From Comamonadaceae bacterium CG12_big_fil_rev_8_21_14_0_65_59_15 (GTDB taxonomy: Bacteria; Pseudomonadota; Gammaproteobacteria; Burkholderiales; Burkholderiaceae_C), in the NCBI GenBank assembly GCA_002786915.1, contig PCUV01000060.1:62001-126000 (forward strand): 64,000 nucleotides of DNA, given 5' to 3'. Shown piece after piece: positions 22,821 through 37,894 of the stretch. The number at the start of each line of letters is the position of its first letter. Position 1 is the stretch's first letter. The translations under genes and the position numbers were made by a program. The notes under the pieces are model-generated. The model saw only the letters and a program-made list of their open reading frames with translations, was not told the DNA's origin and did not search any database.

Positions 22821-22912
22821 GCAACAGGGCAGGGGTGCGTTCCGCCGCAGATGTCCCCCGCCCTGCGGGCTCCTCCTTTATTCCGCTCTGGAACGCACCC
22901 CAGCCCTGCCGC
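22821..22912 (-). repeat. family 1 palindromic element, copy 1 (core read on minus strand)
   Basis: Outer arms 22821-22843 and 22890-22912 (23 nt, 20 paired) enclose the core. Read on the minus strand the core is TAAAGGAGGA, hairpin GCCC-GCA-GGGC, GGGGGACAT. Of the three arm mismatches, two are G-U pairs on this strand but A-C on the other, so if transcribed, the minus strand is the likely RNA. It lies in the gap after the sugar-binding protein gene, antisense to that operon. Confidence 0.75.
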
Positions 22913-22958
22913 TGGACATTGCTAGTTCATTTCCAGGATGTCCAACAGCGTATCGGCA

Positions 22959-23063
22959 CCTGACGGAGTGGGTGTTTCCCGCAGTGAGGTAAAGGAGGAG
23001 ATTGAAAGCCGGTAGGCTTTCGATCGGGGGACACGAACGGAGGGGAATACCCGCTTCGTCAGG
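22959..23063 (+). repeat. family 1 palindromic element, copy 3 (core read on plus strand)
   Basis: Outer arms 22959-22980 and 23042-23063 are 22 nt with four mismatches, all G-U pairs on the plus strand. The core has GTAAAGGAGGA (22989-22999), a long inner hairpin with stem GAAAGCC/GGCTTTC extended by GAT/ATC, and GGGGGACAC (23026-23034). The conserved boxes equal those of copies 1 and 2, while both stems are unrelated in sequence. It is co-directional with the ABC operon and ends 63 nt before the permease start. Confidence 0.78.
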
Positions 23064-23126
23064 TCTGGCAAACACGCTGGTTTTACAGGGAAGGTTTCTT
23101 GGCCTTCCAGCAAAGGCAAGGTAGCT

Positions 23127-24005
23127 ATGAAATCTTTTGAAAACGTGCTCCCCAAACTGGTGATCGCGCCGGGCTTTGCGCTCGGTTTCGCCTTCATCTA
23201 CGGGCTCATGATCTGGAACGGCGTGCTCTCAGTGACCAATTCGCGCATGCTGCCCAACTACGACGAGTTCGTGGGGCTGGAGCAATATGCCAAGCTGTGG
23301 GAAATGGACCGCTGGTATGTGGCGCTGAAAAACCTGGGTATTTTCAGCGTGTTGTACGTCGGCGGATCCATGCTGCTGGGCATGCTGCTGGCGATTTTTC
23401 TGGACCAGAAAATCCGCTTTGAAGGTGTCATCCGTACCATCTATTTGTACCCCATGGCCTTGTCGTTCATCGTCACCGGCACCGCCTGGAAATGGATTCT
23501 GAACCCCAGCCTGGGGTTGGAAAAACTGATGCACGACCTGGGCTGGAGCGGCTTCAGCTTTGACTGGTTGGTGCAATCTGACACCGCCATTTATTGCGTG
23601 GTGATTGCTGGCATCTGGCAGTCGGCCGGGTTTGCCATGGCGCTGTTTCTGGCGGGCTTGCGCGGCATTGACGACAGCATCATCAAGGCCGCGCAAATTG
23701 ACGGGGCCAGCCTGCCGCGCATCTACTGGCGCATTATTTTGCCGGTGCTGCGCCCGGTGGTGTTCTCAACCATTCTGGTGCTCTCGCACCTGTCCATCAA
23801 GGCCTTTGACCTGGTGATGGCGCTTACCGCCGGTGGGCCGGGGTACGCGTCCGATGTGCCGGCCACCTTCATGTTCACCATGAGCTTCACGCGCGGTCAG
23901 ATTGGACTGGGCGCCGCCAGTGCGACCATGATGCTGGCCATGGTGGCGGCCATTGTGGTGCCGTACCTGTACAGCGAATTGCGCACGAAACCGCATGAGC
24001 ATTGA
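23127..24005 (+). CDS. carbohydrate ABC transporter permease (MalF/UgpA type)
   Basis: 292 residues and six membrane helices starting at 'LVIAPGFALGFAFIYGLMIWN'. The inner-membrane coupling loop 'EAA' motif appears as 'IDDSIIKAAQIDGASLPRIYWRIILPVLRP' (near residues 183-212), where the ATPase docks. It pairs with the next permease to form the membrane channel of a sugar importer. The start at 23127 fits the family N-terminus. The gene is downstream of the 22719-23126 gap with its palindromes. Substrate unknown, most likely a mono- or disaccharide given the binding protein. Confidence 0.9.
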   Translation: MKSFENVLPKLVIAPGFALGFAFIYGLMIWNGVLSVTNSRMLPNYDEFVGLEQYAKLWEMDRWYVALKNLGIFSVLYVGGSMLLGMLLAIFLDQKIRFEGVIRTIYLYPMALSFIVTGTAWKWILNPSLGLEKLMHDLGWSGFSFDWLVQSDTAIYCVVIAGIWQSAGFAMALFLAGLRGIDDSIIKAAQIDGASLPRIYWRIILPVLRPVVFSTILVLSHLSIKAFDLVMALTAGGPGYASDVPATFMFTMSFTRGQIGLGAASATMMLAMVAAIVVPYLYSELRTKPHEH

Positions 24006-24021
24006 ACCCAGGGCACTTACC

Positions 24022-35726: not shown

Positions 35727-35962
35727 TTTAGTGCCTTCGCACTCTTTGCTAACGGCTCGGCCATGCCGGCTTTGATGGATTCGCGCATTCCCGGCACTGC
35801 AAGCAGATACAAAGTCTCTTGAATAGCACTCCAATCTTCAGCCGACATCAAGACCGCATTGGTTCGTTTTCCTGAAATCATGATGGGCACATGAGACTCT
35901 GATGTCTCATCAATGATTCGGTATAGATTTGCGCGAGCTTCGCTGGCGGTCAGTGCATGCAT
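35720..35962 (-). CDS. Phd/YefM-type antitoxin
   Basis: 80 residues. The N-terminal 'MHALTASEARANLYRIIDETSESHVPIMISGKRTNAVLMSAEDW' is the classical Phd/YefM DNA-binding domain; the acidic-hydrophobic tail wraps the toxin. Antitoxin-first order and the 7-nt overlap with the toxin gene are typical of yefM-yoeB. It probably represses its own promoter at 35989-36017, whose spacer holds two TACGTA palindromes. Confidence 0.88.
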   Translation of the reverse strand: MHALTASEARANLYRIIDETSESHVPIMISGKRTNAVLMSAEDWSAIQETLYLLAVPGMRESIKAGMAEPLAKSAKALKW

Positions 35963-35988
35963 TTAGCTTCCTCTCGTGGTTGCATTAA

Positions 35989-36017
35989 ATGGTACGTAAT
36001 TTCGTACGTATTGTCAA
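35989..36017 (-). promoter_or_regulatory. phd-yoeB promoter with operators in the spacer
   Basis: On the minus strand: TTGACA (complement of 36012-36017), 17 nt, TACCAT (complement of 35989-35994). Two palindromic TACGTA sites (35993-35998 and 36005-36010, 12-nt period) lie in or at the edge of the spacer. YefM-type antitoxins bind short six-base palindromes (TGTACA in E. coli), so TACGTA is a likely operator here by analogy. Confidence 0.6.
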
Positions 36018-36047
36018 TGTGCAGTTGCAGGCCCGCCTGGTGTGATG

Positions 36048-37448
36048 TCAGCACTCCACAATATTCACCGCCAACCCGCCGCGCGCGGTTTCCTTGTATT
36101 TGGTTTTCATGTCCGCGCCGGTTTCGCGCATGGTCTTGATGACCTTGTCCAGCGACACCACGTGGTGGCCGTCACCGGCCAGCGCCATGCGCGCGGCGTT
36201 GATGGCTTTCACCGCGCCCATGGCGTTGCGCTCAATGCACGGCACTTGCACCAGGCCGCCCACCGGGTCGCAGGTCAGGCCCAGGTTGTGTTCCATGCCG
36301 ATCTCGGCCGCGTTTTCGATCTGCGCCGGTGTGCCGCCCAGCACGGCCGCCAGCCCGGCGGCAGCCATCGAGCAGGCCACGCCGACCTCGCCCTGGCAGC
36401 CCACTTCGGCCCCGCTGATCGAGGCATTGAGCTTGTAGAGCATGCCGATGGCCGCAGCGCTCATCAAGAAGGTGGCCACTGTGCTGGCATCCAGACCCTG
36501 CTCGGTGCGACCCCCGGCGTGCGTGACAAAGCGGTCGCAGTAGTGCAGCACGGCCGGAATCACGCCGGCTGCACCGTTGGTCGGGGCGGTGACGACGCGC
36601 CCGCCAGCAGCGTTTTCTTCGTTCACCGCAAAGGCATAGACGTTGACCCAGTCCAGCACGCTCAAGGGGTCGGCCAGCGTGCGCTCAGCCCGCTCACGCA
36701 GTTGTGCCGCCAGCACCGGTGCACGGCGCTGCACTTTGTAGGGGCCGGGCAACGTGCCGCCGTGTTGCAGGCCGCGCTGCACGCAGTCGCGCATCACTTG
36801 CCAGATGTTGGCCAGGCCGGTGGTGATCTCGGCGTCACTGCGCCAGGTGCGCTCATTGGCCCACATGATCTGGCTGATGCTTTGCTTTTGCTGCTCGCAA
36901 ATTGAAAGCAGCTCAGCCCCAGAAGTAAAGGGGTAGGGCACTTTTTGATACTCGGTCAGCAGCGCTTCGTGGTTGGCTCCGGCGGTGACGACAAAGCCGC
37001 CGCCTACGCTCAAATATTTGGCTTGTTTGAGTAAAGTGCCGTGCGCGTCAAAGGCGCTGAACTTCATGCCGTTGGGGTGCTCGGCCAGGGCTTCGCGCCG
37101 GTACATCAGCAGGTCGTCTTTTTCACGGAACGGCACGGGGTGGCTGCCTAGCAGCGCCAGCTTGTCGCTGGTGCGCACTTGCGCCACCAGCGCCGGGATG
37201 GCATCGACATCCACGCTGTCGGGCGCATGACCCATCAGACCTAGCAGCACAGCCACATCGGAGCCGTGGCCTTTGCCGGTAGCGCCCAGGGAACCGTATA
37301 ACTCGCAGGTGATGTGCGCAGTCTTGTCTAGCAGGTCGCCAGACTGCAGCGCCCCCACAAACATGCGCGCGGCGCGCATCGGCCCCACAGTGTGTGAGCT
37401 GCTCGGCCCGATGCCGACTTTGAAAAGGTCAAAGATGCTGATGGCCAT
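36048..37448 (-). CDS. sdaA: L-serine ammonia-lyase, iron-sulfur dependent, single chain
   Basis: 466 residues. N-terminal beta domain '[25 protein letters not shown]'; catalytic alpha domain with Cys ligands of the 4Fe-4S cluster in '[21 protein letters not shown]' and '[15 protein letters not shown]'. It deaminates L-serine to pyruvate and ammonia in the cytoplasm. The full-length single-chain form matches E. coli SdaA. It has no same-strand neighbour close by: the phd-yoeB unit is 85 nt downstream, and a 446-nt gap with a large palindrome lies upstream. Confidence 0.95.
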
Positions 37449-37894
37449 GGCCGCATGGTAGCCGCGAACCGGTGTGGTCGAAAGTGGCAGGCAAATGCCA
37501 CGCGGATTCGCCCAGTCGTCACTTTGGTTGATGAATCAGTCGGGCGATGCGCTTTGCTACGTGTCCCCCGGCCTGCGGCCTCCTCCTTTACCTCCGCAAA
37601 GCGCATCGCCCGACTGATTCTGCACGGCTGTGGGTTTGCTGGCAGGGGAAATATTAGGCGGCTTTTCTTTGAAGCGCTCAGGCGCGGTGATTGGGGCATG
37701 CGACCGGGCTTTGGGGGCAAAGGCGCGCGCCTACTTTCGCAGGGCTGCTGATCCGTCTGTCTCGCGCGTGTTTTGCCTCCAAAACCGCATGCGCATGACC
37801 CGGTTGCCGCGCCGGGTTCGAAGTGAAGCGTTGGTGATTGAAACGCCGCGTCGATAATGTGAAAAACCCTAATCAATTTGTATCGGAGATTCGC
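37449..37894. other. 446-nt gap between divergent sdaA and glmU
   Basis: No convincing gene. It holds family 1 element copy 2 (37533-37620), a CCCGGTT/CCGGG-type hairpin near 37798-37816, and a weak promoter-like TTGGTG-N16-GATAAT before glmU (about 37829-37856). The open frame on the plus strand at 37455-37751 has no start context or family resemblance. Confidence 0.65.
37533..37620 (-). repeat. family 1 palindromic element, copy 2 (core read on minus strand)
   Basis: Perfect 25-nt outer arms (37533-37557 and 37596-37620). On the minus strand the core is GTAAAGGAGGA, hairpin GGCC-GCA-GGCC, GGGGGACAC. Relative to copy 1 the inner stem changes GCCC/GGGC to GGCC/GGCC, so both sides change and pairing is kept. 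It sits alone in the 446-nt gap between sdaA and glmU; the rest of that gap shows no gene or clear promoter. Confidence 0.8.

What the first reader, a model, noticed from the sequence alone, without database searches (positions are those of the whole stretch)
22821..37620. Family 1: three palindromic elements with fixed boxes and fully variable stems, likely a structured RNA or mobile hairpin
Three elements (22821-22912 minus, 22959-23063 plus, 37533-37620 minus) share one layout: outer arm (22-25 nt), GTAAAGGAGGA, inner hairpin, GGGGGACA(C/T), outer arm. Outer arms have unrelated sequences but each pairs with its partner (25/25, 20/23, 18/22 Watson-Crick). The inner stem also changes on both sides: GCCC/GGGC, GGCC/GGCC, and a long GAAAGCC/GGCTTTC version. 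Of seven mismatches in the outer arms, six are G-U pairs when read on the strand carrying AAAGGAGGA, and the other is T-T. That strand bias is what selection on RNA pairing would leave. The AAAGGAGG box is also a perfect Shine-Dalgarno sequence held between two stems. I know no named family with this design.
Basis: partly seen in the sequence, partly recalled or inferred. Interest (0 to 1): 0.88.

Follow-up and report, generated by a model that had tools for sequence, protein, structure and literature searches.

The report
Dispersed DNA hairpins with fixed boxes
Many copies of one elaborate hairpin are scattered between genes in Burkholderiales and some Xanthomonadales; mutations in the stems are compensated so that one particular strand keeps folding, probably as single-stranded DNA rather than RNA, and the enzyme that uses it has not been found.

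Summary
The three elements are real and belong to a large family. The motif AAAGGAGGA-hairpin-GGGGGACA occurs 14 times in the window's genome, in 71 of 200 sampled genomes of its family, and up to 168 times in a genome; reversed-pattern controls gave 0. Neighbouring copies usually form divergent pairs (38 of 46). The window pair lies between a solute-binding-protein gene and a permease gene. At that site 10 of 19 related loci keep it, one keeps a truncated part and 8 lack it. There the stems change by compensatory substitution (16 of 39 and 10 of 34 pairs). The bias persists where genes run against that strand, and the inner loops are mostly the C(GNA)G type known for very stable DNA minihairpins. 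I favour a mobile, BIME-like element whose selected form is folded single-stranded DNA; RNA remains possible. No Rfam match was found. RAYT transposases, the usual partners of such repeats, neither carry nor track it. The Shine-Dalgarno reading is not supported.

The parts
22818..22915 (-). Element 1 whole: outer stem, junction, boxes, inner hairpin (antisense to the ABC-transporter operon)
   Evidence: orthologues
22871..22879 (-). 5' box AAAGGAGGA of element 1
22860..22870 (-). Inner hairpin GCCC-GCA-GGGC with C(GNA)G triloop
22852..22859 (-). 3' box GGGGGACA of element 1
22916..22957 (.). Spacer between the two divergent hairpins; differs between relatives (by eye)
22958..23064 (+). Element 2 whole, outer stem of about 23 pairs with G.T wobbles
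22991..22999 (+). 5' box AAAGGAGGA of element 2
23000..23025 (+). Long inner hairpin (11 pairs); 7 of its 11 pairs change on both sides among orthologues
23026..23033 (+). 3' box GGGGGACA of element 2
37533..37620 (-). Element 3 whole, no second hairpin found beside it, outer arms 25/25 paired, between a serine dehydratase gene (-) and a nucleotidyltransferase/hexapeptide gene (+)
37581..37589 (-). 5' box AAAGGAGGA of element 3
37570..37580 (-). Inner hairpin GGCC-GCA-GGCC with C(GNA)G triloop
37562..37569 (-). 3' box GGGGGACA of element 3
21405..22718 (+). Neighbour: solute-binding protein (SBP_bac_1) upstream of the pair
23127..24005 (+). Neighbour: ABC permease (BPD_transp_1) downstream of the pair

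Best explanation
A family of extragenic, dispersed (mobile-type) hairpin elements, often two hairpins back to back as in a BIME. SHOWN: one layout (outer stem of about 22 pairs; a short junction; AAGGAGGA opposite GGGGGACA; an inner stem capped mostly by C(GNA)G loops); compensatory evolution at an orthologous site; a strand-specific wobble bias, best read as selection for pairing on the AAAGGAGGA strand, whichever way neighbouring genes run; copying within the own genome; presence or absence at orthologous sites. INFERRED: the selected molecule is that strand as single-stranded DNA, exposed when the duplex opens (for example during replication), folding around a purine-rich core that an ssDNA-acting protein reads, most simply a transposase supplied in trans. 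The enzyme is unidentified and is not a RAYT flanked by these repeats. Once inserted, some copies are kept for long times in operons, where they may also affect mRNA processing (inferred).
For: Strand bias with symmetric scoring: 335 G.T vs 97 A.C in 158 de-duplicated elements, 116 elements G.T>A.C against 17 with 25 ties (printed before the script stopped); within stem positions 10-31, 301:34; beyond, 35:63 (159 elements). By gene direction: same 101:17, opposite 79:24. Window pair and orthologues: antisense element 1 19:3, sense element 2 43:7. Covariation at the orthologous site: 16 of 39 pairs changed on both sides, 97.7% of cells paired; 10 of 34, 91.5%; slid controls at most 6 and 2 such pairs; shuffles reaching the pair count 0 and 2 of 500. 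DNA-type loops: GNA 104, GNNA 11, of 157; C-G closes 101 of 103 GNA loops. PMC4686876 (passages) describes GNA/GNNA loops with G-C pairs as extraordinarily stable DNA minihairpins, Tm 78 C for GCGAAGC, the commonest inner hairpin among the rows listed for Variovorax Root411. Dispersal: five of 14 own-genome copies share a nearly identical ~20-nt insertion in the 5' arm; up to 168 copies; absent at orthologous sites in congeners. No marked preference for gene direction: single copies between co-directional genes 22 with, 15 against.
Against: No enzyme, target-site duplication or exact junction was found. No transcription data were seen, so an RNA made from the AAAGGAGGA strand by a promoter of its own cannot be excluded. 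Xanthomonad-like copies show no clear bias (8:5, 13 elements), nor do copies between divergent genes (6:8, 8 elements). The bias is weaker when genes run opposite (3.3 against 5.9 to 1). Some Variovorax pairs have lost part of an inner-side arm and persist. The five own-genome copies with the insertion fail the paired-arm score and are not in the counts. Gene calls are crude: 11 of 142 groups appear inside an ORF and 14 could not be placed.
Confidence: 0.5

Rival explanations
1. Structured RNA: each hairpin is transcribed from the AAAGGAGGA strand (its own promoter, or antisense to genes) and works as a regulatory or mRNA-stabilising RNA.
For: Covariation and wobble bias are also RNA hallmarks. 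RNA folding is strong (z -4.0 to -11.2). Elements are less often between divergent genes than other gaps are (11 of 117 groups between genes; background 66 of 329; p 0.01), as expected for something in transcripts, though promoter avoidance explains it too. Bias is stronger when the box strand is the gene-sense strand (101:17 against 79:24). A Bordetella sRNA, bprJ, overlaps another betaproteobacterial repeat (PMC3110155).
Against: Bias persists opposite to transcription (79:24; 19:3 at the window locus). Inner loops are DNA-minihairpin type, with GNRA in 3 of 157. No Rfam match. No sigma-70-like promoter or terminator-like site around the window pair.
Confidence: 0.3
2. A REP/BIME family mobilised by a RAYT (or TIR-associated) tyrosine transposase, as for GTAG REPs.
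For: Pairs, extragenic position and copy number resemble REPs/BIMEs. A Y1_Tnp gene is present in 16 of 20 element-bearing genomes.
Against: In 24 Y1_Tnp loci (about 1.5 kb either side, less at contig ends) no copy was found; three loci gave one-mismatch matches without paired arms by eye. Y1_Tnp occurs in 57 of 71 element-positive and 95 of 129 element-negative family genomes (Fisher p 0.39), and 14 element-positive genomes have none, one with 15 copies (G037). RAYT loci examined for inverted repeats mostly have other ones: GTAG-type in L148, L154, L155, L157 and L158, AAATAATTGGGGTCAG in L136. No GTAG or CGTC tag seen.
Confidence: 0.1
3. Binding site for a double-stranded-DNA architectural or regulatory protein, with palindromes kept perfect by template-switch (quasipalindrome) correction rather than by selection on a folded strand.
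For: Boxes are nearly invariant, and template switching can keep arms complementary (recalled).
Against: Neither process predicts a strand-asymmetric wobble bias confined to the stem (301:34 against 35:63), the linked change at box positions 6 and 3', or conserved C(GNA)G loops.
Confidence: 0.08

Closest known systems
REP / BIME elements of enterobacteria and pseudomonads (with RAYTs)
   Same: Extragenic, repeated, palindromic, inverted pairs, also between operon genes; a single-stranded hairpin is what the known enzyme recognises
   Different: About 90 nt or more instead of 20-40; two stems with fixed internal boxes; variable arms; no GTAG tag seen; no RAYT flanked by it found
TIR repeats of TIR-associated tyrosine transposases (Di Nocera et al. 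2013, PMC3733652)
   Same: Untagged repeats, dimers, a GGGG-rich motif (GGGGWSAS; the 3' box contains GGGGACA)
   Different: The repeats around the own-genome Y1 gene are AAATAATTGGGGTCAGATTCCAATTA, without AAAGGAGGA or the nested hairpin. Whether the self-complementary TIRs of S. maltophilia ORF1152 resemble this family could not be seen (figure only)
BRE, Beta-proteobacterial repeat element (Hot et al. 2011, PMC3110155)
   Same: About 90 bp, GC-rich, mostly intergenic, in Bordetella, Polaromonas, Rhodoferax, Delftia
   Different: Described as direct tandem repeats of variable number with high sequence conservation; the present family mostly forms divergent pairs with unalike arms. BRE sequences are in a supplement not readable here
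Bacterial MITEs (ERIC, NEMIS, RUP)
   Same: Size, intergenic copies; Variovorax pairs end in GTTCRGGG/CCCYGAAC-like inverted ends
   Different: No parent transposase and no target duplication found; two independent hairpins with fixed boxes
Extraordinarily stable DNA minihairpins d(GCGAAGC)/GNA loops
   Same: Same loop and closing pair
   Different: In the passages read they are oligonucleotides and aptamer parts; here a conserved genomic cap

Membership tests
GTAG/CGTC REP | Terminal GTAG or CGTC tag beside a 20-40 bp palindrome | tested here: not met
   No such tag in the base composition of 20 nt either side of the boxes in 158 elements or at the Root411 unit end; read by eye
RAYT-associated REP | The repeat flanks a RAYT gene in inverted orientation | tested here: not met
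   No copy with paired arms in 24 Y1_Tnp loci from 20 searched genomes
RAYT-associated REP | Repeat presence follows RAYT presence | tested here: not met
   57/71 against 95/129, p 0.39; limited by the exact pattern, which misses variants
BIME | Inverted pairs of palindromic units, repeated between genes | tested here: met
   38 of 46 adjacent pairs are -+ within 400 bp; 117 of 142 groups between genes
TIR repeats of TIRYTs | Repeat flanks a TIRYT gene and carries GGGGWSAS | tested here: not met
   Many Y1 loci carry GGGGTCAG or GGGGACAG repeats but not the boxed hairpin; ORF1152 TIRs not testable
BRE | Sequence similarity to the Bordetella repeat | not testable with these tools
   Sequence only in the supplement; supplement look-ups capped at 0
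BRE | Direct tandem arrays of variable number | tested here: not met
   2 of 46 adjacent pairs are same-strand
Rfam RNA families | Match at the gathering score | tested here: not met
   0 in the window and in 8 loci; one sub-threshold match outside the elements
Intrinsic terminator | Stem-loop followed by a T run | tested here: not met
   0 found at 22600-23200; element 3 not scanned
MITE | Ends recognised by a known transposase, target duplication | tested here: inconclusive
   Imperfect inverted ends in Variovorax; no duplication seen by eye; no parent element found

The most novel reading that the evidence does not exclude
A natural, phylogenetically conserved single-stranded-DNA fold, the DNA counterpart of a structured RNA: outer duplex, a core of four GGN triplets (GGA GGA ... 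GGG GGA, which could form a two-tetrad quadruplex like d(GGA)4) and an inner duplex capped by a DNA minihairpin. It is maintained by compensatory evolution in many copies and read by a non-RAYT enzyme. The swap GGAGG/GGGGG to GGGGG/GGAGG, and GGCGG variants, vary exactly the bases that would be the one-nucleotide loops.
Probability: 0.2. Interest if true: 0.85.

Novelty: new variant of a known kind. Interest (0 to 1): 0.62.

Why it matters
Covariation plus wobble asymmetry is normally taken as a mark of RNA. Here the asymmetry does not follow gene direction and the loops are of the DNA type, so it may mark selection on folded single-stranded DNA across genomes. The family spans Burkholderiales, Rhodocyclales and some Xanthomonadales, gave no Rfam match, and no name for it was found in the papers searched. 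It offers a clear target for finding a new ssDNA-acting enzyme, and a natural test for G-rich DNA folds in cells.

Tried and rejected
RAYT partner: searched by Pfam model in 20 element-bearing genomes and 200 family genomes, flanks of 24 loci inspected; no link. Recurrent neighbour protein: 524 predicted proteins from the 8-kb loci clustered; among the 25 largest clusters shown, judged by eye from their first residues, ABC, solute-uptake and metabolic genes recur and no transposase was recognised. Viral carriage: 43 exact matches; an early test found none with paired arms, but on recheck 42 were testable and one, L299, scores just below my threshold and looks like a real short-armed copy. Plasmid records: 3 Variovorax records match a Root411 pair; the two I opened have one annotated feature each, so gave no context. 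Shine-Dalgarno role: rejected because the stem begins at the next base and variants lacking the motif persist. Promoter in the spacer: none found around the window pair, and spacers are short and differ. Simple insertion junction: at the L012 locus a congener lacks the ~230-bp block, but no duplication is visible by eye. First, looser pairing count gave 370:234 with alignments running past the stem; later counts use stricter scoring and replace it. First context count (66 tandem, 34 convergent, 10 divergent, 17 inside, 3 edge) did not require paired arms and is replaced. Literature: searches found no description of this family; figures and supplements could not be read.
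Full report
What is there. On the AAAGGAGGA strand each reads: outer arm, short junction, box AAAGGAGGA, inner hairpin, box GGGGGACA, junction, outer arm. Rfam release 15 gives no gathering-score match in the window or in eight further loci; a permissive scan of the pair gives one weak match outside the elements.

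How common. The exact pattern AAAGGAGGA-N(4-34)-GGGGGACA occurs 14 times in the window's genome and 0 times reversed. Of these, 94 carry paired arms; of the other 26, 9 lie at an end and were not testable, 13 look like chance, and 4 keep an inner hairpin without paired arms (sorted by eye). Named hosts among the 94 include Variovorax, Rhodoferax, Hydrogenophaga, Ramlibacter, Rubrivivax, Sulfurisoma, an Oxalobacteraceae strain, Lysobacter, Luteimonas and Stenotrophomonas. In a draw of 200 genomes of the own family, 71 have the exact motif. Twenty genomes chosen because they hold it have 2 to 168 copies. A search that fixes one class of junction and leaves both boxes free matched 8 of 16 such genomes with a reversed control of 0 in all 16; of the rows listed (not all are), every one but one carries the boxes or close variants, by eye. 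For that class the conservation of the boxes is therefore not an artefact of the query. Among 154 de-duplicated elements found with up to three mismatches per box (four in all), every box position is at least 97% uniform except 5' box position 1 (87%) and 3' box position 3 (96%). In viral contigs 43 exact matches were found; 42 could be tested and one (L299) looks like a member.

Arrangement. In the fetched loci 38 of 46 neighbouring elements form a -+ pair less than 400 bp apart, 36 of the 38 with 103-135 bp between the cores. With a crude ORF caller and only elements with paired arms, 142 groups divide into 64 between co-directional genes, 42 convergent, 11 divergent, 11 inside an ORF and 14 not placed; background gaps are 195, 68 and 66, so divergent gaps are under-used (p 0.01). 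Single elements between co-directional genes point with the genes 22 times and against them 15 times. In Variovorax Root411 the unit ends near CGCRCCCYGAAC, about 44 nt after the 3' box.

The window pair is old and evolves by compensation. It sits between a solute-binding-protein gene and a permease gene. Of 19 related loci (L246-L264), 10 keep the pair, one (L258) keeps a truncated first element, and 8 show no element, some with a short ordinary intergenic region instead. In two of the ten (L247, L253) the 5' box of element 1 is altered and the strict search misses it. Aligning 10 of the 11 element-2 sequences (window included), 97.7% of cells pair under the stated structure and 16 of 39 pairs change on both sides; slid controls give at most 6 such pairs and no shuffle of 500 reaches 16. 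For 8 of 9 element-1 sequences the figures are 91.5% and 10 of 34, slid controls at most 2, 2 of 500 shuffles reaching 10; its junction pairs are often not standard there.

Which strand, which molecule. A mutation in a perfect palindrome gives G.T on one strand and A.C on the other, so without strand-specific selection the two should be about equal. With scoring that treats them alike, 158 de-duplicated elements (from 259 with paired arms) give 335 G.T and 97 A.C. Restricted to positions 10-31 the count is 301:34, and beyond position 31 it is 35:63 (159 elements). Leaving out the two positions richest in wobble still gives 257:95. If mRNA were selected, the bias should reverse where genes run opposite to the box strand. 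It does not: 101:17 with the genes and 79:24 against them. At the window locus, where the operon direction is clear, 9 antisense element-1 sequences give 19:3 and 11 sense element-2 sequences give 43:7. Exceptions: divergent contexts 6:8 (8 elements) and xanthomonad-like copies 8:5 (13 elements). The five own-genome copies with the stem insertion are not in these counts. The inner loops add a second hint. Of 157 scored hairpins 104 have a GNA triloop and 11 a GNNA loop, while RNA-type GNRA occurs 3 times and TNCG once; a C-G pair closes 101 of 103 GNA loops. PMC4686876 (passages) describes such loops with G-C pairs as extraordinarily stable DNA minihairpins. The commonest inner hairpin in the rows listed for Root411 is GCGAAGC itself.

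The core. The two boxes form four GGN triplets, GGA GGA and GGG GGA. Box-5 position 6 and box-3 position 3 change together: three of four elements with G at the first have A at the second, against 3 of 150 others (p 0.0001). In one search, five of the six listed GGGGG copies carry GGAGG on the other side, and four GGCGG copies keep GGGGG (counted by eye). This suits a two-tetrad quadruplex with one-base loops, or another purine-rich core. One copy (L082) with an A and a T at facing positions suits ordinary facing pairs better. The quadruplex is an idea, not a result; papers on r(GGA)4 and two-tetrad folds were seen only as search listings.

Mobility. Five of the 14 own-genome copies (L001, L005, L010, L011, L012) share a nearly identical insertion of about 20 nt in the 5' arm on five contigs, so they were copied from one another. 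At the L012 locus a congener 89-93% identical in the flanks lacks the block of about 230 bp. No target duplication or enzyme was found.

The usual partner is absent. A Y1_Tnp gene occurs in 16 of the 20 chosen genomes, but none of the 24 such loci has a copy in the flanks held; three gave one-mismatch matches without paired arms by eye. RAYT loci checked for inverted repeats mostly have others: GTAG-type REPs in Stenotrophomonas-like genomes, a GGGGTCAG terminal repeat in the window's genome. Y1_Tnp is about as common without the element (95 of 129) as with it (57 of 71; p 0.39). Nunvar et al. (PMC2817692, abstract and passages) state that RAYT genes are always flanked by two inverted REPs; that feature is not met. 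Di Nocera et al. (PMC3733652, abstract, passages and section 16) describe untagged terminal repeats with a GGGGWSAS motif and note that untagged palindromes need study; these are the nearest published kind I saw. Hot et al. (PMC3110155, section 14 and passages) describe BRE, but as direct tandem arrays.

Verdict. The pattern is real, large and under strand-specific structural selection. The best reading is a BIME-like mobile hairpin whose working form is folded single-stranded DNA (0.5); a structured RNA is the main rival (0.3). It is a new variant of a known kind unless the DNA fold or a new enzyme is demonstrated.

Noticed in passing
window 22736-22774: Degenerate copy of a second short palindromic repeat (TGTCATCCCGGACTTGATCCGGGATCCAGG type) upstream of element 1; near-identical pieces occur many times in congeners
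   Followed up: partly
L136 1053-1082 and 1878-1907: The own genome's longer Y1 transposase gene is flanked by 30-nt inverted repeats AAATAATTGGGGTCAGATTCCAATTA, matching the published GGGGWSAS terminal-repeat type
   Followed up: partly
L001, L005, L010, L011, L012 just upstream of the 5' box: Subfamily with nearly the same ~20-nt insertion inside the 5' stem, breaking pairs next to the box, yet present in five places
   Followed up: partly
L314, L316, L319 (site orthologous to L012): The same intergenic site holds different hairpin repeats in other congeners (for example GGTTGGGGGACA...TGTCCC), so it looks like a hot spot for palindromic insertions
   Followed up: no
L051, L083, L118 (records titled Bacillus subtilis SK7B5): These records carry the family, and their genome also has GTAG REPs of the Stenotrophomonas kind, so the assembly is probably mislabelled or contaminated
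   Followed up: no
L299 7372-7411: The only viral contig (IMG/VR) whose match has the junctions and short paired arms of the family; a prophage edge or a mobile carrier
   Followed up: no
L193, L202, L211: Variovorax pairs with shortened spacers in which part of an inner-side arm is deleted although the boxes remain
   Followed up: no
outer stem, 3'-arm position 15: A G.T wobble at one fixed stem position (GGTG opposite TACC) recurs in 42 of 158 elements and may be a recognition feature
   Followed up: partly
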